A stretch of 16,486 bases of DNA from Gemmatimonadota bacterium (GTDB lineage Bacteria; Gemmatimonadota; Gemmatimonadetes; Longimicrobiales; Longimicrobiaceae), in NCBI GenBank assembly GCA_019348475.1, contig JAHWJJ010000031.1, forward strand, positions 1 through 16,486, written 5' to 3'. Positions 1,461-14,596 of the stretch are shown piece by piece. Each line of letters opens with the position of its first letter. The stretch's first letter is position 1. Below the pieces are notes generated by a model. It was not told the origin of the DNA. It did not search any database and saw nothing but the letters and a program-made list of their open reading frames with translations. The position numbers and the translations under genes are program-made.

Positions 1461-2345
1461 TCATCCTTTCGGCACCGCAGCGCCGCCGCCGCGCTGTCGA
1501 CCACCACGTTCTGCGCCCGCACGCGGTGCACCACGTGTCGAATAGCGCGGCTGCGGAGGGCCTGGCGCGGGGTGATCCAGGGCGCGCACGGCGGCGAGAT
1601 ACCGTGGAGGCATGAGCAGCCGCTGGATGATCGAGCGCAATCCGGCGCGGACCAGGACAGGGTAGAAGCGAAGCAGAGGCCGCAGCCACGCGGCAGGCTT
1701 CAGTCGCAGGAGGCCTCGCACGTGCCCAGGCGTCAGGATCGACTGGAGCCGCAGCAGGAGGTGATACCGCCAGGGGCCGAGGTGCTTGCGATACTGCGCG
1801 TACAGCGCCTCGGTGCCCTCGCCATGCACCAGGTCGCGGCGCAGGTGAAGCTCGCGATCCGCTCCCCAATCGGCGTACGTCCGCGGGAGGCCGGGGACGC
1901 CCAGGCCGGTGCCCACCCGGTAGAACACGTCGTAGAGCTCGCGCTGCTCATCCGCGGTAAGCGGCCGCGCGAGCGTCTCGTGCGCTCGTTCGGAGTAGTC
2001 GATGAGCATGTAGAGCACGTCGCGGTGCGCCCAGTCGGGGATCTGCCGGCCCCGCTCGCGCTCGACCGCGTGGTGGACCGCCCGGATTCGCGCCAGCGTG
2101 CGCGCGGCGGTCGCTGCGTCGGCGAAGACGATCCCCTGCGCGTAGCCAGCCGTGGAGAAGAGCCGGCCGATGGGGTCGGCGGGCAGCTTGCCCGTAAAGA
2201 ACAGCCAGTCGACGGCACGGTTGAGCGCGAACTCGGCGGCGGAGCCGGCGAAGACCAGGAGCACCATGTCTGCATCTCCCCAGATCCTCCGTACGATGGA
2301 ACCTCGATCGACGAAATCAGCCACGGCACCCCCGCTTTCAGGCAT
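1461..2345 (-). CDS. DUF2236 / MpaB-family oxygenase-like protein
   Basis: This 294-residue protein fits the DUF2236 family (pfam name ER-bound oxygenase MpaB/MpaB'/rubber oxygenase, Lcp). Features seen: an N-terminal helical block (residues 27-60), the stretch LFSTAGYAQGIVFAD (62-76), then RIRAVHHAVE (87-95) matching the family's v-H-x-x-V segment. After that come PDWAHRD (104-110), matching the family's W-V-H motif, ARPLTADEQRELYDVFYRVG (126-145) and a G-V-P-x-L-P-x-T motif near 149-156. Members studied are b-type heme oxygenases that cleave isoprenoid chains, but most bacterial homologues are uncharacterised, so the substrate here is unknown. There is no signal peptide. The last ~45 residues are Arg/Gly/Pro-rich and outside the domain. 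The ATG at 2345 lacks a strong Shine-Dalgarno sequence; a candidate promoter lies just upstream. The gene is divergent from a lanthipeptide-like precursor, so a tailoring role is conceivable but unsupported. Confidence 0.8.
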   Translation of the reverse strand: MPESGGAVADFVDRGSIVRRIWGDADMVLLVFAGSAAEFALNRAVDWLFFTGKLPADPIGRLFSTAGYAQGIVFADAATAARTLARIRAVHHAVERERGRQIPDWAHRDVLYMLIDYSERAHETLARPLTADEQRELYDVFYRVGTGLGVPGLPRTYADWGADRELHLRRDLVHGEGTEALYAQYRKHLGPWRYHLLLRLQSILTPGHVRGLLRLKPAAWLRPLLRFYPVLVRAGLRSIIQRLLMPPRYLAAVRALDHPAPGPPQPRYSTRGAPRAGAERGGRQRGGGAAVPKG

Positions 2346-2897: not shown

Positions 2898-3210
2898 GCT
2901 CCCGGTCACGCCGCGAGCCGGTGCACCCCCCCGACCGCGCCGCGCTCGCAGACCGTCACGTACACCAGATCGGCGTTTGGGTCGCGCACCTCCCACAGCG
3001 GCGCTGCGAGCGCCTGTCGACGATGTACGCGGGCTGCGCGGCGGGTGCGGGTGCTGCAGCGCATCTGGTCTGCGACGTGCAGGCGGCCCGTGCGCCCGGC
3101 TCCTTCGCGGTGAGGAGCCGATTTCGTCCCGCCCCCCAGCGCTCGCCGCCATGTCCGTCGCGCCCACCCCGTCCGAAATCTTTCGCCGCTCCGCCAACGA
3201 AGGCGAGCGG
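2898..3210 (+). repeat. Direct repeat, copy 1 (contains the transporter start)
   Basis: This stretch is repeated, with scattered substitutions and small indels, at 4037-4346. Shared landmarks in order are CCGGTCACG, GAGCCGGTGCACC, CACCAGATCGG, CACCTCCCACAGCGGCGCTG, GCGGGCTGCGCG, CTGGTCTGCGACGTG, CGTGCGCCCGGCTCC and CCGAAATCTTT. By eye the best 200 bp agree at roughly 85% of positions. Copy 1 runs into the first codons of the formate/nitrite transporter (ATG at 3151). On its minus strand, one frame reads APLWEVRDPNADLVYVTV and continues to a stop at about 2906, which may be the decayed 3' end of an older gene. Confidence 0.8.
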
Positions 3211-3939
3211 CGCCTGGACCAGTCGCTCCTGGAACTGGTGTCGACCGCGTTCATCGCGGGCTTCACGATCATCTTCGGCATCGTCGCGCTCGGGATCGTC
3301 CATGCCGCGGTCGAGCCGCAGGCGGGGCAGATCGCGCGCATTGCGGGCGCGCTTGCCTTTGCCCCCGGCGTGGTATTCCTGATCGTGGGTCGGGCCGAGC
3401 TGTTCACCGAGAACTTCTTCGACCCCGCCGCGGCCGTGGTCCAGCGGCGCGAGTCGCGGCCGGTGCGGCAGCTGATGCGGTTGTGGGCCGTGACCTTTGT
3501 GCTGAACCTGATCGGCGGGACGCTCTTCGCGCTGGTGTTCGCGGTGCCCGGCGTTCTTCCGGAAGGAGCGCCGGAGGCGCTGCGCAGGGTGGCCGAAGAG
3601 ATCGCGGCTCGCGGCGCATGGGCCGGGTTCGCATCGGCGGTGGTGGGGGGCGCCCTGGTCGCGCTGCTCTCGTTCTTCCTGGCGGCGGTGAACGGCGTCG
3701 GCAGCCGCATCGCCATGGCCTACCTGGTCGGCTTTCTTCTGGCCGTGGGACCCTTCGACCACGTGACCGTGACCGTGCTGCACGTGTTCGTCGGCATCCT
3801 CTTCGGCGCGGGCATCGACCTGGGCACGGTGGCCGTGATCATGGCGATCTCCACGGCCGGCAACCTGGTGGGGGGTGTGGGCCTGGTTACCCTCAGCCAC
3901 GTCGCGCAGGCCCGCGGCGCGGACGAATCCGGCGAGTGA
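3151..3939 (+). CDS. Formate/nitrite transporter (FNT) family membrane protein
   Basis: This 262-residue protein is about the usual FNT length (260-290) and has six hydrophobic segments. Recognisable features are an amphipathic start (SEIFRRSANEGERRLDQS), the first helix AFIAGFTIIFGIVALG, and GRAELFTENFFDP, equivalent to the family's L-F-T-G/E-N re-entrant segment. A central G-P-F-D-H-V-T-V-T-V-L-H segment supplies the pore His, and AGNLVGGVGLVTLSHV near the C-terminus matches the family's G-N-x-x-G-G signature. FNT pentamers move formate, nitrite, hydrosulfide or similar small anions across the inner membrane. This sequence looks closer to the YfdC-like branch than to FocA/NirC, so the substrate is open. 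The ATG at 3151 is chosen because the hydrophilic N-terminus typical of the family starts there; no good Shine-Dalgarno sequence precedes it. The start lies inside a direct repeat whose second copy has ACG at this position. Confidence 0.88.
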   Translation: MSVAPTPSEIFRRSANEGERRLDQSLLELVSTAFIAGFTIIFGIVALGIVHAAVEPQAGQIARIAGALAFAPGVVFLIVGRAELFTENFFDPAAAVVQRRESRPVRQLMRLWAVTFVLNLIGGTLFALVFAVPGVLPEGAPEALRRVAEEIAARGAWAGFASAVVGGALVALLSFFLAAVNGVGSRIAMAYLVGFLLAVGPFDHVTVTVLHVFVGILFGAGIDLGTVAVIMAISTAGNLVGGVGLVTLSHVAQARGADESGE

Positions 3940-4535: not shown

Positions 4536-6653
4536 GTGCCTTCCGGCATTCCCGCCCCAGCCTTCGCACACCACCCGGCTGTGCATCCAGCCGCGGAAGA
4601 GGTCCTGCGCGGCGACCCGGCTGGCGCGTATGCCAGCTGCGACACCCGGACGCAATGGCAGTATCACGTCGCCCTCGCCGAGTGGGAACGCCGTACGGGA
4701 GTCGACCGCGTGTCGCTCGCGCGCAGCGCCCTCGCGCGCGCCGAAGCTGGCAAGGAAGCCGACGGAGCCGACGCTCCCACCGCGCACGTCGGCTACTACC
4801 TTGTCGGGGACGGCGTACGGGAGTTCGGGATGGGCTCCACCACGGGTTCCGCGGGCGCGCGGAAGGGGCCGCGGCTTGCACCCGAGCTGCTCGTGCCTCT
4901 GGTCGTCACGCTCGCGACGCTGCTCCCCGCGGCCTGCATTGCCGTGCTCCACGGCAGTGGATCGCCGGCGTGGGTGCAGGTCCTGGCCGCGACCGCCGCG
5001 GTTCCGCTGGGCTGGGTGTACGCCTCGACCATCAGCCGAACGCTCCCGTGGCACCGTCGCGTGCATCTGCCGCTGCCCAGGCTGCGTGCAGGCGAGGGGC
5101 GCGCCAGCGATGAAGCCGTGGTGATCGTGGTTCCCGCGATCACCACTTCGCCGGCGCGCGCCCATGCACTCGTGCAGCGCCTGTGGGCGCTGTACGAGGC
5201 GCAGCCCGCGGCCGAGTTCCGGTTCGCTCTCCTGTCGGATTTCGGCGACGCGCCGGCGCAGGCATCCTCCGACGACGAAGCCATCCTCGCCGAGCTCCAG
5301 GCCGGTATCGCCGCGCTGAACGCGCGGGCGCGCGACTCCCTCGGGGACCGGTTCTTCGCGCTGCACCGGCGCCGCACCTGGAGCGCCACGCAGGAAGCAT
5401 GGATCGGCTGGGAACGCAAGCGCGGCAAGCTCCTGGAGTTCGTGCGCCTCCTGCGGCCGGGTTCGCCCGAAACGACGTTCAGGTGGCAGTTCGGCGACCT
5501 CCCCGGACTGGTCTCTCGGGCCTCGATCCCGTTCGTGATCACCCTGGACGAGACGACGTGGCTGGCGCCGGGCGCCGCCGCCGAGCTGATCCGGACTGCG
5601 GCGCACCCGCTGAACCGTCCTCACGTGGATGAAACCACCGGCCGGGTCACGTCGGGGTACGCGGTGTTGCAGCCGAGCGTCCTGTTCACCCTGGATCCTC
5701 CACCCACACCGACCAGCGACGCCTCACCACCGTCTCGCGGGGCGGCGCGGGCCGGGGGACCCACCTTCTACTTCAGCACCCTCGGCGTCGGAATGCACCA
5801 GGGCGCCGGAGCGCTCTACCACGTCGATGCGTTTCGGCGTGCGCTGGACGGCGCGTTTCCGGACGACCTCGTCCTGCACCATGACCTGCTCGACGGCTTC
5901 GTCGGACGCACCGGCGAGGCTTACGAAGCCGCGGTGCACCAGCCGCTGCCGAAGACCTACCTGGCCCAGGCGCAGCGTGGACACCGGTGGCTGCGCGGCG
6001 TCTTCCAGGCCATCCCCTTCCTCCTCCGCGCCAGCGGAGCCAGGCGGGGCACACGCGGCCGGAACCCGTTGACGGGGGTGCAGCGATTCATCGTCGCCGA
6101 GCTGGTGCTCCTGGAACTGGCGCCGGCGGCGTCGCTGACGCTGCTGCTGCTGGCGTGGACCGTTCTCCCCGGCGCGCCGACGTTCTGGACGCTGCTCGCC
6201 TGCCCTCCCCTGTTCGTGCTCGGCGCATTCCTGCTCCGCCGGGCCGTCTCCCTTCCGATCCGTCGCCTGCGTGGAGGGCGGCGGTCCGGCTGGGGGCCGG
6301 CGCTGCATCGGATGGCGTCCGCCGGGTTCGCGCAGGTCGTGCTCGTCTACCAGGCCTTCGTGGTGGTCGACGCGCTGGCGCGAGTGGCCTGGCGGCTCGG
6401 CGTGTCGCGCAAGCGCCTGCTGGAATGGGCGCCGCGGCACGACTCCGCTTCCACGTCCGCCACACCGCTGGCCGCGTACTGGCGGGCGCTGTGGGTGTCG
6501 CCTGCCGTGGGTGCGCTGACGCTCGCGGCCCTCGCCGCCTGGAGGCCGGGGGTGCTCTGGATCGCCGCTCCCTTCGCGGTGGCCTGGATCGCCGCTCCCG
6601 TCATCGTGGGACTCGGCGATCGATACGTTTTCGGCGTGGAGGGACCGACCTGA
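4536..6653 (+). CDS. Stand-alone GT84 (NdvB / cyclic beta-1,2-glucan synthase-like) glucosyltransferase
   Basis: The protein matches the glucosyltransferase part of NdvB/cyclic beta-1,2-glucan synthases (normally >2,500 aa) but has only ~705 residues, without the glycoside-phosphorylase (GH94) half. In order: the pre-membrane region ending HVGYYLVGDG (about 88-97); two TM helices (about 113-166); FALLSDFGDAP; FFALHRRRTW; GWERKRGKLLEF; ITLDETT (D338); AHPLNRP; LHHDLLDG (D450); QRGHRWLRG (480-488); then about five TM helices including SRKRLLEW. NdvB enzymes use UDP-glucose at the inner membrane. The usual acidic motif L-D-A-D-T is L-D-E-T-T here, and the segment before FYFSTLG is shortened, so activity is uncertain. 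The start is uncertain: homology already runs at VLRGDPAGAYASCDTRTQW with no ATG upstream, so I took the GTG at 4536. The GTG at 4581, or the ATG at 4830 (GGGAG six bases ahead), are alternatives. The gene appears N-terminally truncated. Confidence 0.75.
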   Translation: MPSGIPAPAFAHHPAVHPAAEEVLRGDPAGAYASCDTRTQWQYHVALAEWERRTGVDRVSLARSALARAEAGKEADGADAPTAHVGYYLVGDGVREFGMGSTTGSAGARKGPRLAPELLVPLVVTLATLLPAACIAVLHGSGSPAWVQVLAATAAVPLGWVYASTISRTLPWHRRVHLPLPRLRAGEGRASDEAVVIVVPAITTSPARAHALVQRLWALYEAQPAAEFRFALLSDFGDAPAQASSDDEAILAELQAGIAALNARARDSLGDRFFALHRRRTWSATQEAWIGWERKRGKLLEFVRLLRPGSPETTFRWQFGDLPGLVSRASIPFVITLDETTWLAPGAAAELIRTAAHPLNRPHVDETTGRVTSGYAVLQPSVLFTLDPPPTPTSDASPPSRGAARAGGPTFYFSTLGVGMHQGAGALYHVDAFRRALDGAFPDDLVLHHDLLDGFVGRTGEAYEAAVHQPLPKTYLAQAQRGHRWLRGVFQAIPFLLRASGARRGTRGRNPLTGVQRFIVAELVLLELAPAASLTLLLLAWTVLPGAPTFWTLLACPPLFVLGAFLLRRAVSLPIRRLRGGRRSGWGPALHRMASAGFAQVVLVYQAFVVVDALARVAWRLGVSRKRLLEWAPRHDSASTSATPLAAYWRALWVSPAVGALTLAALAAWRPGVLWIAAPFAVAWIAAPVIVGLGDRYVFGVEGPT

Positions 6654-6678: not shown

Positions 6679-8760
6679 TCACGCCGCGCTCGACGAGGAC
6701 ACGCGGACCAGGCGGTATTCCGATGGGATGATGTCGGACCGGCCGGTGCACAGCACCACGATGCAGGGAAGCGTGTGGAGCGACCGCGCGAGTGCCCGGG
6801 CCTCGTCCACGCCGAGCTCGTCGAGCGTCCCGTCCAGCACCAGCACCAGGGGCAGCCGCGGCAGCAGGCGGGCGAGGCAGAGCAGCCGTGAAGCGGGCCC
6901 GGGAAGGGTTCCCGGAGAAAGAGGCGTGAGTTCGCCGAGCGGCCTCGTCGCCAGCCAATCGCCCAGGCCCACGCGCGTGCACGCGTCGAGCACGGCCGCC
7001 CTGCCGCACGCGGGATACACGACCTGGAAGTTGTCCAGGATGGTCGCGGCGAGCGGCTCCGCACCCGCCAGCACACCCGCCGCGAGCGTCCGCCGCAGCG
7101 CCTCGTCCACCTGCGCGACCTGGATACCGCCGATGGTCAGCGCTCCATCAGACGGGCGGGCGAGACCGAGCACGAGGTGGGCGAACGCGGTTCTCGCCTC
7201 CGCGTCTCCCAGGACCGCGATCGACTCGCCCGGCGCGGCCTCCACGCTCGTCGGCGACAGGCGCTCGTGCCCGCCGGCCGCATGGCACACCGACCGGCAC
7301 CGCAGCGTTCCATCCGGGTCTCCCGCCGGCTCGCCCGGCCGCGCGGGGTCGGGTACCTCCAGGCACGCGTCCGCCAGCGCGGCGAGGCTCGCCGCCCACG
7401 CGCGAAGCCGGGCGATCTCACCCGCCGCCGCGTGGGTCGCGCCGAGGGCGGCCGTCCCGAGCAGCAGGACGACGACGGCGTCTCCGTGGGCCAGGTCCCC
7501 GGTCACCGCAGCGCTGCCGGTGAGTAGCGCAAGCCCGGCGAAAGCGGCGCCGAGCAGCCCCACGTGCGGCTCTGGCGGCGCGGGCGACGAACCGCCCATG
7601 GCCCCGTGCGCCCCGGCCCGGAGCTCCGCCCAGCGTTCCAGCGCGGGGGTAAGGCCCCCCCCGGCGCGCAGGTCCACCGGTCGCGTGAGGACGGCGCGGC
7701 CCCATTCACGCGCCGCCTGCACGGCGCCGCGCCAGCGCATGGCGCGATGGCGCCACCGCCTGGTGCGCCATCCCGCCCCGGCCGCCACGACCGCGAGCGA
7801 AACGAGCACTCCGAGGCCGACCACCACCGACACCCACAGCGACACGGCGGCGGCGGCGAGGGCGAGCCCCCCCAGCCGAATGCAGCGGAGCGACGGCAGC
7901 CGGGGATTGACCGCCGGATCGAGATCGCCTGCCAGGTGCTCCAGGAAGCGGCTCGTCCTGGAGGCCAGGTACTCCCGCGGCGCATTCGCGGCCATGCGCA
8001 CGAAGCGCTGCGCGAGGAAATCTCCCACCGTACCCGAAAGGACCGTCTCCAGCCTCGCCGCCCGCCGGCTCAGCCCGGCGGCTGCCCCCAGGCAGAGCGC
8101 GGCGACCGCGATCGCCGCGGCGGGATGCAGGGCTCCCGCTTCCATGGCCGCGGTGAACGCGCCGCCCGCCCACCACACCCCCGCCGAAGCGGATGCGCCC
8201 ATTCCAAGCGCCCAGGCGCCGAGGCGCGCGATCCGGGTGCGCTCCCGGCGAACCCACGGCGAGAGGACCGACCACGCGCGGCCCCACTCCGATCCACTCC
8301 CTGATCCCGCGTCCCCTGGCGTGGGCGCCGGCTGATGCTCCGGTTCCAGCACCAGCGCACACCCGCTGTACAGGCGGCCGAGTTCCTCGCAGTCCAGGAG
8401 CACGCGTCCGCCCGCGGGGTCCACGATGGACACGCGGCCGTCGCGAAGCCCCTCGAAAACGACGAAGTGCCCGCGCCGCCAGTGCAGAATGGCGGGCGCG
8501 GGCAGGGCCTGCAGCGTGTCGGGCGGCGCCTCGAACCCCTCGGCTTCGAAGCCGCACGCGTGGGCTGCGGCGCGCAGGCTTTCGAGCGTCGACCCGCCCG
8601 ACGTGTCGCCGACGGCGCGGCGAAGGTGGTTTCGTTCGTACTTCGCCCCGTGGTAGCGAAAGACCATCTCGAGCGCCGCCAGGCCGCAGTCGCTCGCACC
8701 GGTCTGGCGGACGACCGGCACGCGCACCGCGGACTGCGGGGCATTCCGGGATGTGCTCAC
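6679..8760 (-). CDS. C39-peptidase ABC protein (LanT-like) with a degenerate ATPase domain
   Basis: This is the last gene of the lanthipeptide operon, about 693 residues. Residues 12-130 are a C39 leader peptidase: Q19, C25 in SDCGLAALEM, H98 in GHFVVFEG and D114 in SIVDPAGG, so the triad is intact and cutting after the precursor's VAGG is expected. Residues ~165-430 are a hydrophobic, Ala/Gly-rich membrane domain. The C-terminal ~210 residues follow an ABC nucleotide-binding domain in order but not in motif. Walker A is GDAEARTA (518-525, no GKS/T). The Q-loop Gln is gone (VLAGAEPL). The signature is LSPGTLPGP (from 614) instead of LSGGQ. Walker B ends LVLDGTLDEL, with G644 where the catalytic Glu should be. 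The H-loop His is replaced (LCTGRSD). ATP hydrolysis is therefore unlikely. The GTG at 8760 is chosen because GTGA overlaps the upstream stop by 4 nt; another GTG at 8781 is possible. Confidence 0.85.
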   Translation of the reverse strand: MSTSRNAPQSAVRVPVVRQTGASDCGLAALEMVFRYHGAKYERNHLRRAVGDTSGGSTLESLRAAAHACGFEAEGFEAPPDTLQALPAPAILHWRRGHFVVFEGLRDGRVSIVDPAGGRVLLDCEELGRLYSGCALVLEPEHQPAPTPGDAGSGSGSEWGRAWSVLSPWVRRERTRIARLGAWALGMGASASAGVWWAGGAFTAAMEAGALHPAAAIAVAALCLGAAAGLSRRAARLETVLSGTVGDFLAQRFVRMAANAPREYLASRTSRFLEHLAGDLDPAVNPRLPSLRCIRLGGLALAAAAVSLWVSVVVGLGVLVSLAVVAAGAGWRTRRWRHRAMRWRGAVQAAREWGRAVLTRPVDLRAGGGLTPALERWAELRAGAHGAMGGSSPAPPEPHVGLLGAAFAGLALLTGSAAVTGDLAHGDAVVVLLLGTAALGATHAAAGEIARLRAWAASLAALADACLEVPDPARPGEPAGDPDGTLRCRSVCHAAGGHERLSPTSVEAAPGESIAVLGDAEARTAFAHLVLGLARPSDGALTIGGIQVAQVDEALRRTLAAGVLAGAEPLAATILDNFQVVYPACGRAAVLDACTRVGLGDWLATRPLGELTPLSPGTLPGPASRLLCLARLLPRLPLVLVLDGTLDELGVDEARALARSLHTLPCIVVLCTGRSDIIPSEYRLVRVSSSSAA

Positions 8761-9722
8761 CCGATCATCCCGCCGGTCCACCGGTGCGGCAGCCGGAGCA
8801 TCGCCCTGCGCCGTGGATCGCCCCCGCGCAGCACCGCCGTGTACGCGATGCGCAGCGGGAGCCCACAGCCGCTTTCGAGGAGTTCCGCGCTCGTCAGGGG
8901 GCCTTCATCGTCAGGGAGCCGTTCGTAGGGACGAGCGCCGAGCTCCTTCAGCACCTCCCCTGCCGCCCGGCCTCCGCGCACCGCCGCTGCCAGGAGCCGC
9001 ATCCGCGCGCTGGTTTCCCGCCAGTCCGGGAGGCTCATCACGCCCGCGCCGTACAGGAAGTGCAGCAGCCGCACCTGGCTGCTCAGGGCGCGATCGAGGT
9101 TCCGCCCGGCGAGGGGCGCGCGCGGCGCGGGAAGGAGGCTCGCCAGGACCACGGCCTGAAAAGGGTTCAGCGACCGGGGGCTCGCATCGAAGTACGCCCG
9201 CGCGGCGTCCTCGATCCCCCAGGTGCCCGGGCCCCATTCCACCACGTTGACGTACAGCTCCAGGATCCGCCGCTTCTCCAGCACCGCCTCCAGCCGGCGC
9301 GCGAGCAGCACCTCGAACAGCTTGCGCGTTCCCGATCGCTCCTCGGACAGATACAGGTTCCGCGCGAGCTGCTGCGTGATGGTGCTCACCGCCACCGCTC
9401 GTCCCCCGCTGCGCGCGGCGGAATACAGGCGGGCCGCCACCTGGCTCCACCAGATCCCGCGATGCTGAAAGAACGCCGGGTCTTCCGCGCCGACGATCGC
9501 GCAGAGGGCATACGGGGAAAGCTCGGCCACGTCCGTCCAGCGCGCCGCCCCCTGGCCTCCGCCGCGGGGGTCCCCCCGCAGGCGCATGTATGCCGTGGTC
9601 CCCGGCCTCTGGGCGCGGAGCCGCGGGACGTCGCTCCACGCGCCGAAGAAGCCGTGCGGCCCGGGACGTCCGGGTGCGGCGGGCGAAGCGGCCCGCTCGG
9701 GAGATGGCCGCGCCCGGCCCAT
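8757..9722 (-). CDS. Monofunctional GT51 peptidoglycan glycosyltransferase in the lanthipeptide operon
   Basis: The 321-residue protein has every GT51 motif: the catalytic Glu E80 in AEDPAFFQHRG, STITQQLARNL (113-123), R-K-x-x-E with E137, and KRRILELYVN (150-159) followed by EWGPGTWGIEDAARAYF. GT51 enzymes polymerise lipid II into glycan strands on the outer face of the inner membrane. This one resembles MtgA-type enzymes, with no transpeptidase domain. Two oddities: the first 65 residues are Pro/Arg/Gly-rich with no TM helix or signal peptide, whereas MtgA is normally anchored; and about 110 residues of unknown nature follow the domain. The ATG lies 2 nt past the lanB stop and the stop overlaps the next gene's start, so it is firmly embedded in the operon. 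Because lipid II is the usual target of class I lantibiotics, a self-protection or target-related role is plausible but inferred. It could also be an unrelated cell-wall gene captured by the operon. Confidence 0.85.
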   Translation of the reverse strand: MGRARPSPERAASPAAPGRPGPHGFFGAWSDVPRLRAQRPGTTAYMRLRGDPRGGGQGAARWTDVAELSPYALCAIVGAEDPAFFQHRGIWWSQVAARLYSAARSGGRAVAVSTITQQLARNLYLSEERSGTRKLFEVLLARRLEAVLEKRRILELYVNVVEWGPGTWGIEDAARAYFDASPRSLNPFQAVVLASLLPAPRAPLAGRNLDRALSSQVRLLHFLYGAGVMSLPDWRETSARMRLLAAAVRGGRAAGEVLKELGARPYERLPDDEGPLTSAELLESGCGLPLRIAYTAVLRGGDPRRRAMLRLPHRWTGGMIG

Positions 9723-9724
9723 CG

Positions 9725-12700
9725 TCAGGCTCGCGATGCCGAACGCGCCCGCCCGACGATGCTGCGATACGCGCGGTGCAGCCGGTCGTACAGGATGGGT
9801 TCGGCGTTCACTCCATCCGCCAGCGTGCGATTCACCCACATGTGGCTCAGGCTGAGCAGAACGTCTTCGAGCGGCGTCTGCAGGGCGCCCGCGGCCTCCA
9901 GTTCCCGAAGCCGGGTCAGCAGCGGCCGCATCGCGGCCGAGCGGCCGGCGAGGAAGGCCTCCACCGCGCGGGCCGCGGCGTCTCCGGCATCCGCCGCAAG
10001 CACCCGCATGACCAGGGGCCGGCACTGGCGAAACTCCATGCTCCGGGCGTGGCGCGTCGCGGAAGGAACCTGGCCGATCGCTCGCTCCAGCAGGGCGATC
10101 CGGCCCTCCACCGAAAGACCGGCATCCGCGAACAGCCGGTCGATGCCGGCCAGGACGATGAGGTCGCGGGGCGTTTCCCGCAGGAGCGAGGCACCGCCTG
10201 CGCCCGCCGCCAGGGTGAGGGCGGCGTCGCTGTCCACGGCGAAGACGCCCTCGGCGACGCCGATGGTCTCCGGCCCGCCGTAGCGTTCCACCTCGGGAAG
10301 GTAGGTGTCGAAAACCAGCCGGGCCAGCCTTCCCGAAGCGATCGCGGGGCCCGCCGCCGCCCCGACCAGTTCGAACAGCCGCGGTACCGCCCTGGGATCC
10401 GCCCGAAAGCGAAGGCGGATGTGGAACTCCGGGTCCGCGTAGCGCAGGAAGAACCAGCCGTGCACGGCCAGCTCGGACCTGGCCTTCCACACCAGGGGCG
10501 CAACGATGTCACGGAGGACCTGTTCCGCGCTGCCCCTCCCGCAATACAGCTTCGCGTAGAGCCATTCGGAACCGGGAGGGTGCGCGCGGACCGCGGGCCG
10601 CGCGCCGGCCCCTGCCGCCGCCGGCACGTGCGCGGCGCTCGTCCGCTCGCCCGGGTCGGGCAGGGCGCTCCGCACCAGCGGGATGATGACCTCGTTCGTA
10701 AAGCTCCCCTCCGGCCCCTGGGCGCAGAAGGCGCCGGGCTCCAGCAGGGATTCGATCACCGTCGCGCTCTGCCGGCCCTTGAGCAGCCTCGCGAACATCA
10801 CGGCGCTGACCGGATTCTCGAAGTCGACGGGGAGGCGGTTGTCGGCGTCGGAGACGAGGGCGAAGCGCGGAATCCCGCGCTCCGCGCGCCATGCCTGCAC
10901 GGCGTGGTGGTCGGACCGGCTTCCGGCCTCGGCGAGCTGCTTTGCGTCACGCGGCGACAGGTTCCACGTGGCGCTGCTCAGAACCAGCCGGCCTCGCGTG
11001 ACCCGCGGCAGAAAGGAAGCCGTCCCCTGCGCCCCCCAGGTCCAGTACGTGGTGGTCTGCTGCATGTGGTCCTGGAGCATGCAGAGGAACCGGTACACGG
11101 GAAGCTCGTGGTCGCCGTGATAATTGTGCGCGGTGCTGAGCCGTGGGTGCACGTCGCGGCCGAGCCGTGCCGAGCGCAGCCTCACGCGCCCGCGCCTGAC
11201 GGATACGCGAAGGTCCGCCAAGTCGATCTGGCACTCGGCGGCCGCCCCGCCACGCCCCAGATACGAAAGCTCGTGGGCCCGCAGCACGGGGCGCGCGATC
11301 ACGTTGCCCACCCGGCCCTGCGGCAGATGAATGATCTCGGCGAAGACTGCATCGGGCCGAAGCGCCTCCTCGGCGGCCAGGTACGCCCGGACCCTGCCTT
11401 CGAGGTCCTCGTCCAGATGCGCGAATCGCCCCAGCAGGCGTGCGCCGGACGTGCCGGAGACGTGGTTCACGACGAGCTGGTACTCGCCTCGATCCACCGC
11501 CTCGCTGCTCGCCGCCACGATGGCTCCGAAGAACGCGAGTGCATCGGGAACGGTGCGCGCGTCGGACGACCGCAGCCGCTCCACGTCCTCGTCGGTCAGT
11601 TCCACCTCCATCGCCCGAGCGTACGCGGCCCGGCACCGCAGCTCCGACAGGACGCCTTCGCGCCGGTTCCGCGCCTCCGTCACCCGCCGCATCACCCCGT
11701 CGTCCGCGCTCGCGCTGGGCATGCCGATGCCCACTTCGTCGTCGAGCGCCTCGAGCAGGGGCACCTCGCGCGTCTCGTATCGTGCCTCGAAGCGCGCGGC
11801 GAACGCGGCAAGGGGGTCGTAGGTGGGAATGATCCGGGGCAGCAGCTCGGCCGCGGCGACGGCATCCTCCACCACCATGCGGCCGATGGAGGCCGAGGCC
11901 GCCGGCTTGTAAAGATCCACCTGGAGGATCTTGGCCTCGTCGACGGGCACCTGCAGCTGGCGCAGCGGCGCCACGGCGGCGCCGTAATCCGGGAGGCCGC
12001 CCACGCCGCCCGCGTCGATGTCCCGCAGGCGGGCGCACACGTCCCGCAGCGCGGCGCTAACCAGGGGGGCGCACGCCGCCGCCTCGAGCGACTCCGCCAT
12101 CGCGGCGCCGGGATCTCCTCCGGATACGATCGGGTCCAGCTCAGGTACCAGGAGCTGCGCATCCAGCAGCTCGGCGATAAACCCCTCCACTTCGTCGTCG
12201 GCGTATCCCTCGGCCAGGAGAGGCTCGGCCAGCTCCCGGAACGACGCTCCATTCCGCGCGCGGGCCAGCGCGTCGAGAATCTCCGGTGTCGGGTCGGCGG
12301 CCGTGAGCTCGTAGTTCCTCACCCGCCCGGAGTATCGCGTCTCCACGTAGTGCAGACGCCCGCCCAGAAGGGCCGCGCTCGTGTTGGTGCGGAGCGGCAC
12401 CCGGCGGCGGCAGTCGGCGTCGGTGCCCAGGACGCGCGACAGCTCCGCCAGGTGGTCCATGCCGATCCGCGTCTTTCGCGTGTACTCCGCCCGCGCGCCC
12501 AGCCGCAGCTGGGTCCGGTCCGCGACGTCGACGGTGCTGCACCCCGCGAAGAGACCGAACGGCGTGCACCGGTACGTCGCGCGGGCGAAGTACCGCACCA
12601 GCGAATACAGCAGGCGATCAGCGTCGATCCTGCGCGATCCCGTGAGCCAGGCGTCGATCTCGTCGGACAGCGCCACGGATGCCACGCGGATGGCCTCGCG

Positions 12701-12910
12701 AAACGCCGGCTGGTCCACGATGCCGCGCATGACGTCCAGCGGCGCCGCCGGATCGGCGCTCCCGGCGGCGGAATCCGCGGAGACTGCCTCCCTCGTTCGG
12801 CGTGACCAGTCGAAGAAGTCGTCGATGGCAAGAAGGGGCGTGCGCAGGACCGCGAACCCGGCGTCCACCAGGGGCGCGGTCTGAGCTCCCGAGGAGGGTG
12901 GCGTGGGCAT
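9725..12910 (-). CDS. lanB: Full-length LanB lanthipeptide dehydratase
   Basis: At 1,061 residues this has the length of classical LanB (NisB about 993). The N-terminal glutamylation domain carries the family hallmark YRCTPFGLFAG (113-123) and, further on, PTYDPLAAFAARFEARYE with the VPLLEALDDEVGIG segment. The C-terminal SpaB_C/elimination domain starts near residue 781 (SEWLYAKLYCG) and includes FFLRYADPEFHIRLRF (about 818-833) and SLSHMWVNRTL near 1,020, which align with the elimination-site Arg and His of NisB. LanB uses glutamyl-tRNA to activate Ser/Thr of the precursor and eliminates glutamate to give dehydroalanine/dehydrobutyrine. It acts in the cytoplasm with LanC. The ATG at 12910 has GAGGA overlapping the lanC stop codon, with a 9-nt intergenic gap, which indicates translational coupling. 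Split LanBs of thiopeptide clusters are excluded, as both domains are fused. Confidence 0.96.
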   Translation of the reverse strand: MPTPPSSGAQTAPLVDAGFAVLRTPLLAIDDFFDWSRRTREAVSADSAAGSADPAAPLDVMRGIVDQPAFREAIRVASVALSDEIDAWLTGSRRIDADRLLYSLVRYFARATYRCTPFGLFAGCSTVDVADRTQLRLGARAEYTRKTRIGMDHLAELSRVLGTDADCRRRVPLRTNTSAALLGGRLHYVETRYSGRVRNYELTAADPTPEILDALARARNGASFRELAEPLLAEGYADDEVEGFIAELLDAQLLVPELDPIVSGGDPGAAMAESLEAAACAPLVSAALRDVCARLRDIDAGGVGGLPDYGAAVAPLRQLQVPVDEAKILQVDLYKPAASASIGRMVVEDAVAAAELLPRIIPTYDPLAAFAARFEARYETREVPLLEALDDEVGIGMPSASADDGVMRRVTEARNRREGVLSELRCRAAYARAMEVELTDEDVERLRSSDARTVPDALAFFGAIVAASSEAVDRGEYQLVVNHVSGTSGARLLGRFAHLDEDLEGRVRAYLAAEEALRPDAVFAEIIHLPQGRVGNVIARPVLRAHELSYLGRGGAAAECQIDLADLRVSVRRGRVRLRSARLGRDVHPRLSTAHNYHGDHELPVYRFLCMLQDHMQQTTTYWTWGAQGTASFLPRVTRGRLVLSSATWNLSPRDAKQLAEAGSRSDHHAVQAWRAERGIPRFALVSDADNRLPVDFENPVSAVMFARLLKGRQSATVIESLLEPGAFCAQGPEGSFTNEVIIPLVRSALPDPGERTSAAHVPAAAGAGARPAVRAHPPGSEWLYAKLYCGRGSAEQVLRDIVAPLVWKARSELAVHGWFFLRYADPEFHIRLRFRADPRAVPRLFELVGAAAGPAIASGRLARLVFDTYLPEVERYGGPETIGVAEGVFAVDSDAALTLAAGAGGASLLRETPRDLIVLAGIDRLFADAGLSVEGRIALLERAIGQVPSATRHARSMEFRQCRPLVMRVLAADAGDAAARAVEAFLAGRSAAMRPLLTRLRELEAAGALQTPLEDVLLSLSHMWVNRTLADGVNAEPILYDRLHRAYRSIVGRARSASRA

Positions 12911-12919
12911 CCAGCGTCC

Positions 12920-14158
12920 TCAGCTCAGAAGCAGCAGCCGGTCCCACGACCGGTCGCCGTCCGGGTGCAGGGCGTTGAGCAGCGATAACCCCACTCCCGC
13001 CGCACCCTGCAGGAACGACGCATCCGGCTGGATCTGGGGAGTGCCTTCATGCCACCGGGCGAAGTAGAAACCCGCCACTCCCTCGCCCGGCAGCCGCATG
13101 TTCATCGTGGTGGCATGCCACGCGTCGGCGCGAAGCCGCAGCTGCTCGTCGTCCAGGGCACGGCCCAGGATTCCGAACAGGTGTCCCAGCCCCGCCGATC
13201 CGTGGCACAGCGAGGTGTCGACGACGGTGTGGCGCTCCGACTCGGCCAGGGCAGCGGCCCGGCGTGCCGTGCGGTGGACCCCGCGGAGCAGCTCGCCGTC
13301 CGCCAGCGCTCGCGACGCCAGGAGGAGCGCCACGGCGATCCCGGGGTCGCCGTAGCACCACGCCGCGCGATGCCGGAGCGGCGTTCGCGGCGCGCGCGGG
13401 TCCACCATCACGCCGTAGGCGCCCCGTTCCCCTTCGGGACGCTCCAGCCCCATCAGCCAGCGGACCGATTCCCGGAGCATCTCCTCCGCCGGCTGCCGGT
13501 CCTGGCCGTGAAGGAGCGCCAGCGCCAGGAACGCGATCACCCCGGGAACGCCGTGCGCCAGGCCGAGGTCGTACTTTCCGTCGGGGAGCGAGTCGCGCTG
13601 GGTAGACGGAACCAGCTCGGGTCTGGTGAACCAGCGCATGCCGCGCTCGTCCCGCTCGCCGGTGGCCTCGAGCCTCGCGATCACCCGCCGCAGGCCTTCC
13701 GCGGCGGCGGGTGCGGGCAAACGTTCCAGGAAATAGGTCCCCAGCCCTACGGCACCGCTGATCAGGTCGTAGGGCGGGGTGACGTCGTCGCTCACGGAGT
13801 CGATCAGCAGGTCGTCGATGCTTTCGAAATCGAGTGCGTCCTCCGCGCCACCGATCCGCTCCATGTGGGCAAGAGGCCAGGCCATGCCGGCAATCCCGCC
13901 GTAGAGGTACGGCTGCATGGGCACCTCGGCGATGAACTCGGCGCAGATTTCCGCCGCCTCGCTCGCGGCATTCCGGTACTTCGCGTCGCCGGAAACGCGG
14001 CTCAGGTGAGCGAGGAACAGCGCGGCCGCGGGAGGGATCTCCATCGAAGGGCGGCCGCCGGCGCGCATCAACGCCAGAAGCGCCTGCGCGATGTCGGTAA
14101 TGGCGGGCGCAAGTGCCGTGCGGTCCAGCGGCCGGTGCAAGGCGGTCGGAACGGTCAT
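12920..14158 (-). CDS. lanC: LanC-type lanthionine synthetase (cyclase)
   Basis: From the ATG at 14158 the protein is 412 residues, matching NisC (414). It shows the repeated G-x-x-G alpha-toroid motifs (LYGGIAGMAW, LISGAVGLGTYF, LAHGVPGVIAF, WCYGDPGIA, LCHGSAGLGHLFG, LQGAAGVGLSLL). The zinc ligands are C268, C318 and H319, and H202 sits at the catalytic-His position. LanC activates precursor Cys thiolates on Zn2+ for Michael addition to dehydro-residues, forming (methyl)lanthionine rings. The frame stays open upstream to a GTG at 14281, but that codon lies inside the intercistronic hairpin (14264-14291) and the extra 41 residues do not look like LanC, so the ATG is preferred even though its Shine-Dalgarno sequence is weak. 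The gene sits between the precursor (147-bp gap) and lanB (9-nt gap). Stoichiometry is likely set by the hairpin, with precursor more abundant than cyclase. Confidence 0.95.
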   Translation of the reverse strand: MTVPTALHRPLDRTALAPAITDIAQALLALMRAGGRPSMEIPPAAALFLAHLSRVSGDAKYRNAASEAAEICAEFIAEVPMQPYLYGGIAGMAWPLAHMERIGGAEDALDFESIDDLLIDSVSDDVTPPYDLISGAVGLGTYFLERLPAPAAAEGLRRVIARLEATGERDERGMRWFTRPELVPSTQRDSLPDGKYDLGLAHGVPGVIAFLALALLHGQDRQPAEEMLRESVRWLMGLERPEGERGAYGVMVDPRAPRTPLRHRAAWCYGDPGIAVALLLASRALADGELLRGVHRTARRAAALAESERHTVVDTSLCHGSAGLGHLFGILGRALDDEQLRLRADAWHATTMNMRLPGEGVAGFYFARWHEGTPQIQPDASFLQGAAGVGLSLLNALHPDGDRSWDRLLLLS

Positions 14159-14263
14159 GTAGCGGGGCTCGGGGCAGGGATCAGCGGGATTGTGGACGAG
14201 CACGCAAGCGAGGTTCGTTTCAACCAGCCCGGGTATTCGGGTTCCGGCCTCCAGGTGCAGGTG

Positions 14264-14291
14264 CTGCCGCCGGGATGGCACCCGACGGCAG
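14264..14291 (-). terminator. Intercistronic hairpin between precursor and lanC (partial terminator / stabiliser)
   Basis: CTGCCG (14264-14269) pairs with CGGCAG (14286-14291) and CGGG (14271-14274) with CCCG (14281-14284), separated by one C/A mismatch, with a 6-nt loop. On the transcribed minus strand it starts 14 nt after the precursor stop. It has no T-tract, as expected for a read-through element. Comparable inverted repeats after the structural gene are known in lantibiotic operons (for example nisA) and limit expression of downstream genes. Confidence 0.6.
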
Positions 14292-14305: not shown

Positions 14306-14596
14306 TCAGCAGGTGCAGGTCACGGTGCAGTCGCAGGTGCAGCCGGGCTCGCTTTCGCACGAGCCCTCGCACGTCCACCAGCAGCTGTACTCGTGGGTCG
14401 AGGGCTCGCAGGTCTGTCCCCAATCCACCGTGTAGACGCATCCCGCCCACGTGCACGGCTCTGCGCTGTATCCCGTACCGCCCGCCACCTGCCGCAAGGT
14501 CCGCGCTCCCAGCTGCCGCAGCGTTTCGCGCGCGACCTGCAGCTTGCGGCGCGGGGGGGGAGATCCGTCGGTGGTGCTTTGCTCCAGGTGATCCAT
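14306..14596 (-). CDS. lanA: Class I lanthipeptide precursor with VAGG leader and 11-Cys core
   Basis: This 96-residue precursor heads the operon. The leader (1-40) contains RKLQVARETLRQLG and ends TLRQVAGG, the K-L-x-x-x-x-E-T-L...V-A-G-G pattern of double-glycine class I leaders that C39 proteases cut. The core (41-96) has 11 Cys (48, 53, 63, 72, 76, 80, 86, 88, 90, 94, 96) and 15 Ser/Thr. Seven Cys directly follow a Ser/Thr, and SCWWTCEGSC (71-80) has a four-residue period, so the Cys-proximal C-terminal half could be densely bridged. It should be dehydrated by LanB, cyclised by LanC and trimmed by the C39 domain encoded in the same operon. The ATG at 14596 has a strong GGAGG five bases ahead. 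The frame is open further up, and an ATG at 14737 lies only a few bases past the predicted transcription start, so a leaderless longer form (143 aa) is a less likely alternative. Confidence 0.9.
   Translation of the reverse strand: MDHLEQSTTDGSPPPRRKLQVARETLRQLGARTLRQVAGGTGYSAEPCTWAGCVYTVDWGQTCEPSTHEYSCWWTCEGSCESEPGCTCDCTVTCTC

What the first reader, a model, noticed from the sequence alone, without database searches (positions are those of the whole stretch)
8757..9722. GT51 lipid II polymerase embedded in a lanthipeptide operon: candidate self-protection by the target enzyme
A complete GT51 domain lies between lanB and the C39/ABC gene, with a 2-nt gap on one side and a 4-nt overlap on the other. 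Lipid II is both the GT51 substrate and the target of many class I lantibiotics. No LanI or LanFEG immunity gene is visible, so a dedicated lipid II-consuming or lipid II-binding enzyme could protect the producer. I know of no established precedent for a GT51 enzyme in this role.
Basis: partly seen in the sequence, partly recalled or inferred. Interest (0 to 1): 0.8.

Follow-up and report, generated by a model that had tools for sequence, protein, structure and literature searches.

The report
Soluble GT51 enzymes in antibiotic-type clusters
A cell-wall-building type of enzyme that has lost its membrane anchor but kept its active site sits inside a lanthipeptide gene cluster, and close relatives sit in other peptide natural-product clusters of the same bacterial family, which suggests a dedicated but still untested role in making the product or in surviving it.

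Summary
In detail: an intact GT51 gene (8757-9722, minus strand) lies between lanB and a C39 gene, with a 2-nt gap and a 4-nt overlap. It is no lone oddity. It belongs to a GT51 group that keeps the catalytic residues but shows no transmembrane helix or signal peptide by hydropathy. A profile search of 154 genomes of the order found six such genes. All six lie in biosynthetic clusters: four lanthipeptide clusters of two types and two NRPS clusters. The other GT51s of the order whose N-terminus I scored (27 loci) have a transmembrane helix. The producer has further GT51 genes.

The gene is cluster-dedicated, but an enzyme that apparently stays in the cytosol is badly placed to protect against a lantibiotic acting on lipid II outside. 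The four lanthipeptide clusters each carry a second putative glycosyltransferase; in the window it is a stand-alone NdvB-type GT84 domain (4581-6653, plus strand), conserved in Longimicrobium terrae. The ABC half of the C39 protein is degenerate in both genomes.

I favour, weakly, a cytosolic lipid II-dependent tailoring step over self-protection. Neither is shown. The literature searches listed gave no precedent.

The parts
8757..9722 (-). TM-less GT51 (peptidoglycan glycosyltransferase domain plus ~90-aa helical C-terminal extension)
9725..12910 (-). LanB, full-length lantibiotic dehydratase
   Evidence: PF04738 and PF14028; 64% identical to the L115 LanB
12920..14281 (-). LanC cyclase (start probably the ATG at 14158, judged from the alignment to L115)
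   Evidence: PF05147 148.4 bits; 60% identical to the L115 LanC from residue 51
14306..14596 (-). Precursor peptide, 96 aa; leader KLQVARETLRQLGARTLRQVAGG, core rich in Cys and Thr
   Evidence: Translation; leader conserved in the L115 precursor
6679..8781 (-). C39 leader peptidase fused to an ABC-exporter-like part with a degenerate ATPase (start GTG 8760 or 8781)
   Evidence: PF03412 is the only Pfam hit; Walker A, signature and the Walker B Glu absent here and in L115 but present in the L119 ABC
4581..6653 (+). Stand-alone GT84-type glycosyltransferase (NdvB/Cgs GT domain), convergent with the operon
   Evidence: E 6.8e-63 to cyclic beta-1,2-glucan synthase 8rf9/8rf0; 58% over 686 aa to the convergent gene in L115; second Asp of the NdvB LDAD motif is Thr here and in L115

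Best explanation
A cluster-dedicated, anchorless GT51 that works on the cytosolic side of the inner membrane, where lipid II is made. Shown: the gene is embedded in the operon, the active-site residues are intact, no anchor is seen, and the same enzyme type recurs in lanthipeptide and NRPS clusters. Inferred: it binds lipid II (or a similar polyprenyl-diphosphate sugar) at the inner leaflet. Inferred, weakest step: it takes part in tailoring the product, for example by moving a lipid II-derived sugar unit onto a product already primed by the neighbouring glycosyltransferase, rather than in building the cell wall.
For: Six of six TM-less relatives found by profile among 154 genomes of the order lie in biosynthetic clusters. 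An alignment of 39 TM-less rows has invariant E80, D81, F84, H87, S113, Q117, Q118, R133, K134, E137, K150, so activity appears to be under selection. The compartment matches that of LanB, LanC and NRPS. In L118 and L119 the GT51 start overlaps the stop of a GT2-like protein by 4 nt, and in the window and L115 a GT84-type protein lies convergent to the operon: a second putative glycosyltransferase in 4 of 4 lanthipeptide clusters. GT84-type copies in G005 also lie beside P450, aminotransferase, monooxygenase or NRPS genes. Group-specific Val in place of Gly or Ala before the catalytic-motif Ser (V112: 76% of 33 group rows against 0 of 74 TM+ rows). The similar cluster in G013 lacks GT51, as an optional decoration would. 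The TM-less L035 relative stands with an amidase without hydrophobic stretch and a Cupin_8 protein.
Against: No product structure is known. GT51s are known (recalled) only for lipid II polymerisation. No second glycosyltransferase was seen beside GT51 in G005, whose contig ends soon after it; in G016 the next gene is a GT4-type enzyme after a gap of about 0.5 kb and may not belong. The window GT84 protein lacks the second Asp of the DxD motif, so its activity is doubtful; the GT2-like call is sub-threshold. Recruitment by unlike product classes fits a resistance gene at least as well as a tailoring enzyme. Lack of export rests on hydropathy alone.
Confidence: 0.35

Rival explanations
1. Self-protection: a spare, cluster-borne GT51 that shields the producer, either as a less sensitive lipid II polymerase or as a soluble decoy that binds the product or its target before export.
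For: Extra GT51 beside other copies; recurrence in chemically unlike clusters, as expected (recalled) of target-duplicate resistance genes; no LanI/LanFEG-like gene among the window genes and five L115 flank genes scanned; catalytic motifs kept.
Against: No anchor or signal by hydropathy, so the wrong side of the membrane for a product acting outside; Gemmatimonadota are diderm (recalled), which lowers the need; the sister cluster in G013 lacks GT51; no functional data.
Confidence: 0.3
2. The GT51 fold has been re-used with another donor or acceptor (another polyprenyl-diphosphate sugar), with no link to lipid II at all.
For: Group-specific V112 and P82 and a C-terminal W315 conserved in the group; no anchor; company of other unusual glycosyltransferases.
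Against: The motif residues that (recalled) handle lipid II in GT51s are invariant in the 39 aligned rows.
Confidence: 0.15
3. Ordinary MtgA-type enzyme that landed beside the cluster by chance, with cell-wall duty only.
For: Same fold and motifs; the genomes of this family are very rich in NRPS genes, so NRPS neighbours alone are weak evidence; 16 of 20 contigs with a LanB match carry no GT51 match.
Against: No anchor; operon-tight spacing; same order in two genomes; 3 of 6 against 0 of 90 beside LanB; other GT51s present.
Confidence: 0.07

Closest known systems
Monofunctional peptidoglycan transglycosylase MtgA (GT51, TIGR02070, PF00912)
   Same: GT51 fold and catalytic motif residues; structural match to S. 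aureus MtgA 3hzs/3vmt and A. aeolicus PBP1A 2oqo
   Different: No N-terminal transmembrane helix by hydropathy; 131.6 bits against the TIGR02070 cut-off of 182.65; extra C-terminal helices; V112; cluster-borne
Class I lanthipeptide clusters (LanB/LanC)
   Same: Full-length LanB, LanC, Cys/Thr-rich precursor, C39 peptidase
   Different: GT51 and GT84-type genes; exporter ATPase degenerate; no LanFEG/LanI seen among the genes scanned
Pinensin-type lanthipeptide clusters (relatives L118, L119, L227)
   Same: Leaders like KLxLSLDDLRVETF; split LanB and S8 protease in L119 and L227
   Different: GT2-like partner in all three and a coupled GT51 in two of three; NF038180 leader score 20.6, below its cut-off of 24, in the one precursor tested
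Target-duplicate self-resistance genes in antibiotic clusters (recalled: gyrB, fabF, PBP copies)
   Same: Extra copy of a target-type enzyme inside the cluster
   Different: Compartment unlike the presumed target's; no resistance shown
NdvB/Cgs cyclic beta-1,2-glucan synthase (GT84 domain; the GT84 name is recalled)
   Same: Window 4581-6653 aligns over residues 28-676
   Different: 690 aa against about 2,800; DxD altered

Membership tests
GT51 / PF00912 | Profile match over curated cut-off | tested here: met
   138.2 bits against 27
GT51 / PF00912 | Catalytic motifs (EDxxFxxHxG, STxxQQ, RKxxE; motif names recalled) | tested here: met
GT51 / PF00912 | GT51 fold | tested here: met
GT51 / PF00912 | Lipid II polymerase activity | not testable with these tools
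   Needs a biochemical assay
MtgA (TIGR02070) | Score over the equivalog cut-off | tested here: not met
   131.6 against 182.65
MtgA (TIGR02070) | N-terminal transmembrane anchor | tested here: not met
   Best 17-residue hydropathy -0.22 before TAYM; 0.36 when the open frame upstream is included; 2.34 for the TM+ relative G012
Class I lanthipeptide cluster | LanB with both domains, LanC, Cys-rich precursor | tested here: met
Class I lanthipeptide cluster | LanI or LanFEG immunity genes | tested here: inconclusive
   None among the window genes and five L115 flank genes scanned; small LanI lipoproteins could be missed
Target-duplicate self-resistance gene | Extra copy beside other copies | tested here: met
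   4 GT51 matches; 6 in G017
Target-duplicate self-resistance gene | Conserved location in biosynthetic clusters | tested here: met
   6 of 6 TM-less loci found in the order
Target-duplicate self-resistance gene | Same compartment as the target | tested here: inconclusive
   No anchor or signal by hydropathy, which speaks against it; no dedicated signal-peptide predictor and no fractionation
Target-duplicate self-resistance gene | Confers resistance | not testable with these tools
   Needs experiments
Functional C39 ABC exporter | Walker A, signature, Walker B Glu | tested here: not met
   Absent in window and L115, present in L119
Pinensin family leader (NF038180), for relative L118 | Score over cut-off | tested here: not met
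   20.6 against 24, one precursor tested
NdvB/Cgs GT84 | Sequence homology over the GT domain | tested here: met
   E 6.8e-63
NdvB/Cgs GT84 | Intact LDAD (DxD) motif | tested here: not met
   LDET here, LDDT in L115

The most novel reading that the evidence does not exclude
Anchorless GT51s are natural-product tailoring enzymes that draw on lipid II at the cytosolic face of the membrane as a donor, conjugating a muropeptide-type disaccharide unit to lanthipeptides and nonribosomal peptides: a link between cell-wall precursor chemistry and natural-product glycosylation that I did not find described in the searches listed.
Probability: 0.18. Interest if true: 0.92.

Novelty: new variant of a known kind. 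Interest (0 to 1): 0.68.

Why it matters
GT51s are treated as membrane-anchored cell-wall polymerases and as antibiotic targets. A group that has shed the anchor, kept the active site and been taken up by lanthipeptide and NRPS clusters would mean either a new self-protection route against cell-wall-active peptides or a new way to decorate them. A carrier is already in culture (Longimicrobium terrae), so the question can be tested directly.

Tried and rejected
Chance neighbour: disfavoured, because the operon order is conserved in a second genome and contig lengths of GT51 and LanB relatives coincide. Amphipathic N-terminal anchor in place of the TM helix: hydrophobic moment over 38 rows, mean z 0.89 against shuffles, window z -0.42; not supported for the window, inconclusive for the group. 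Catalytically dead decoy: of 16 positions compared, 15 do not vary in the 33 group rows used (33 of the 38, two of them replaced by their protein copies) and R121 is Lys in one row. Plasmid-borne relatives: one hit at E <= 1e-20, annotated PBP1A. Acidobacteriota survey from L035: 8 further hits in 396 genomes at E <= 1e-42, all with a TM helix. Genome-contig scan: 80 loci kept of more; those scored were mostly anchored. Rows L059, L070, L072, L085, L086 and L101 score low there because the hydrophobic stretch lies just after my cut; L079 and L082 I could not judge. L035 was the one TM-less locus I accepted. TM+ GT51 near a LanB-like gene: G013:C1, about 6 kb away, taken as coincidence. Gene calls in my scripts use GC3 bias and are rough. 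The hydropathy threshold (1.3) was set after seeing two separated groups, and P0053 was set to TM by hand (score 1.75). Four rows outside the two TM-less groups also score as TM-less (P0042 a fragment, P0086, P0094, P0095). For the tree I left out P0001 and P0010, rows without the motif pattern, and two of three rows after P0096; for the AU test I dropped 22 of 131 rows. A first Pfam scan of the L119 LanB gene, read from a start too far upstream, gave no hit, and NCBIfam gave none for the proper ORF; Pfam on the proper ORF gives PF04738 145 bits.
Full report
CHECK OF THE OBSERVATION. The GT51 ORF is at 8757-9722 on the minus strand, 321 aa, PF00912 138.2 bits. It starts 2 nt after the lanB stop codon and overlaps the GTG start of the C39 gene by 4 nt. 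The operon reads precursor, lanC, lanB, GT51, C39. The precursor (14306-14596) carries the leader KLQVARETLRQLGARTLRQVAGG and a Cys/Thr-rich core.

WHOSE GENOME. G017 is Longimicrobium terrae or a very near strain: its LanB is identical to P0125, named L. terrae, and that protein's contig length, 3,950,089, equals contig 1 of strain CB-286315T in PMC7291104 (passages read), where antiSMASH lists lanthipeptide clusters without describing this one. The window's genome is placed in the same genus. So I call the family Longimicrobiaceae and the phylum Gemmatimonadota, by inference.

IT RECURS. A search of 21 genomes of the family gave 96 GT51 matches at E <= 1e-10. G017 holds the same operon (L115): LanC 60%, LanB 64%, GT51 59% and C39 protein 55% identical, with a precursor sharing the leader. 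Protein lists for GT51 and LanB share contig lengths for P0001/P0121 (the window), P0005/P0123 (14178), P0007/P0122 (192782), P0009/P0127 (14082), P0010/P0125 (3950089) and P0011/P0126 (38301). So 6 of the 12 best GT51s (P0001-P0012, the window counted) appear to share a contig with a LanB at least 61% identical. For the other six GT51s no equal length was found, nor for P0124, P0128, P0129, P0130 and the partial P0137 among LanBs of 61% or more. Sharing is inferred from lengths, except for the window and G017, which I read.

THE SIX TM-LESS LOCI FOUND IN THE ORDER LIE IN BIOSYNTHETIC CLUSTERS. With a profile of the group, 11 of 154 genomes of the order matched at E <= 1e-50. The six best (346 bits or more) lack the anchor; the other five (G012 at 313 bits, then 205 or less) have it. 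Of the other 90 GT51 matches in the family I scored 24, all with a hydrophobic helix (lowest 1.68); 66 were not scored. With three more loci of the order (L203, L205, L206) this makes 27. Distant TM-less GT51s could therefore have been missed. The settings are as follows. Window and G017: LanC-LanB-GT51-C39. G011 (L119): beta-lactamase-fold protein, LanC, ABC exporter, GT2-like protein, GT51, two precursors with a pinensin-like leader, S8 protease, split LanB. G004 (L118, a 5.1-kb contig without LanB on it): HlyD, GT2-like protein, GT51, three such precursors. G005 (L117): NRPS, indoleamine dioxygenase, GT51. G016 (L167 and L116): NRPS, ADOP-like permease (below its cut-off), P450, methyltransferase, three aminotransferases, a glyoxalase-fold (HPPD-like) protein, an MFS transporter, GT51. 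These genomes are very rich in NRPS genes, so the two NRPS cases are weaker than the four lanthipeptide ones. Of 395 genomes drawn from the phylum, matches of 160 bits or more to the window GT51 came only from this family (5 genomes, one of them the TM+ G012). L035 stands beside an amidase (PF01510) without a hydrophobic stretch and a Cupin_8 protein.

RESULTS AGAINST A SIMPLE RULE. Of 20 contigs with a LanB match in the family, 16 carry no GT51 match; short contigs may explain some. The G013 cluster (L227) has the GT2-like protein, LanC, split LanB, S8 protease, ABC, HlyD and a pinensin-like precursor, but no GT51 match on its contig. Among the LanB relatives listed at 52% identity or less, none shares a contig length with the listed GT51s; both lists are capped at 120 rows.

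OTHER PARTS OF THE CLUSTER. The gene at 4581-6653(+), without a Pfam match and without a meaningful NCBIfam match, matches the glycosyltransferase domain of cyclic beta-1,2-glucan synthase (E 6.8e-63; the class name GT84 is recalled). Its homologue is convergent to the same operon in G017 (58% over 686 aa). Among 150 genomes of the order, full-length matches near 60% occur only in these two; G007 has a 62% fragment; the rest are 33-38% identical, many of them in frames of 2,800-3,000 aa as in NdvB. G005 has three shorter copies, one of them cut by a contig end; they lie by a P450 and an aminotransferase, by a luciferase-like monooxygenase, and by an NRPS. The NdvB LDAD motif reads LDET in the window and LDDT in L115, so activity is uncertain. 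The C39 protein's ATPase half has lost Walker A, the signature and the Walker B Glu in both genomes. So 4 of 4 lanthipeptide clusters with GT51 carry a second putative glycosyltransferase, GT84-type or GT2-like. The GT2-like assignment rests on sub-threshold PF00535 hits (E 0.007 and 0.011) and a DxD read by eye.

MECHANISM. Steps shown: cluster membership, conserved active site, no anchor by hydropathy. Inferred: cytosolic-side contact with lipid II. The tailoring reading (0.35) is favoured by compartment, coupling to biosynthetic genes, the glycosyltransferase company and the optional presence. The protection reading (0.30) is favoured by recurrence in unlike clusters and the presence of other copies, and disfavoured by the compartment.

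LITERATURE. Nine searches: lanthipeptide with transglycosylase, immunity and lipid II, Longimicrobium with lanthipeptide, cluster with peptidoglycan glycosyltransferase and self-resistance, GT51 with lanthipeptide, pinensin, moenomycin self-resistance, lantibiotic dehydratase with transglycosylase, anchorless transglycosylase, Gemmatimonadota with lanthipeptide and glycosyltransferase. No listed title or abstract start names a GT51 in such a cluster. I saw listings only, plus passages of PMC7268733 (no 'transglycosylase' in its main text), PMC6804068 (moenomycin clusters with transporters; no GT51 gene named as a resistance gene in the passages) and PMC7291104. Most subscription papers are not in the library.

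Noticed in passing
4581-6653 (+): Stand-alone NdvB-type GT84 domain beside the lanthipeptide operon, conserved in L. terrae, with an altered DxD; shorter copies in G005 also sit by biosynthetic genes.
   Followed up: partly
6679-8781 (-): C39 peptidase fused to a conserved but ATPase-degenerate ABC exporter, so export of this lanthipeptide is unexplained.
   Followed up: partly
L118 1981-3834 (-), L119 7840-9708 (+), L227 5678-7534 (-): GT2-like 617-622 aa protein of pinensin-like clusters; 25 homologues at E <= 1e-10, two of them with a C39 domain; no PDB match for the L118 protein and only sub-threshold Pfam and NCBIfam hits for L118 and L119.
   Followed up: partly
L035 3519-6021 (+): Second TM-less GT51 lineage in an Acidobacteria MAG, followed by a cytosolic-looking Amidase_2 and a Cupin_8 protein, as if a small pathway.
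   Followed up: partly
L123 (G013:C1:99000-118000): NRPS-like genes near a LanB-like domain protein, with an anchored GT51 about 6 kb away.
   Followed up: no
3151-3939 (+) and 1461-2345 (-): Formate/nitrite transporter family protein and an MPAB/Lcp rubber-oxygenase-like protein, apparently unrelated to the cluster.
   Followed up: no
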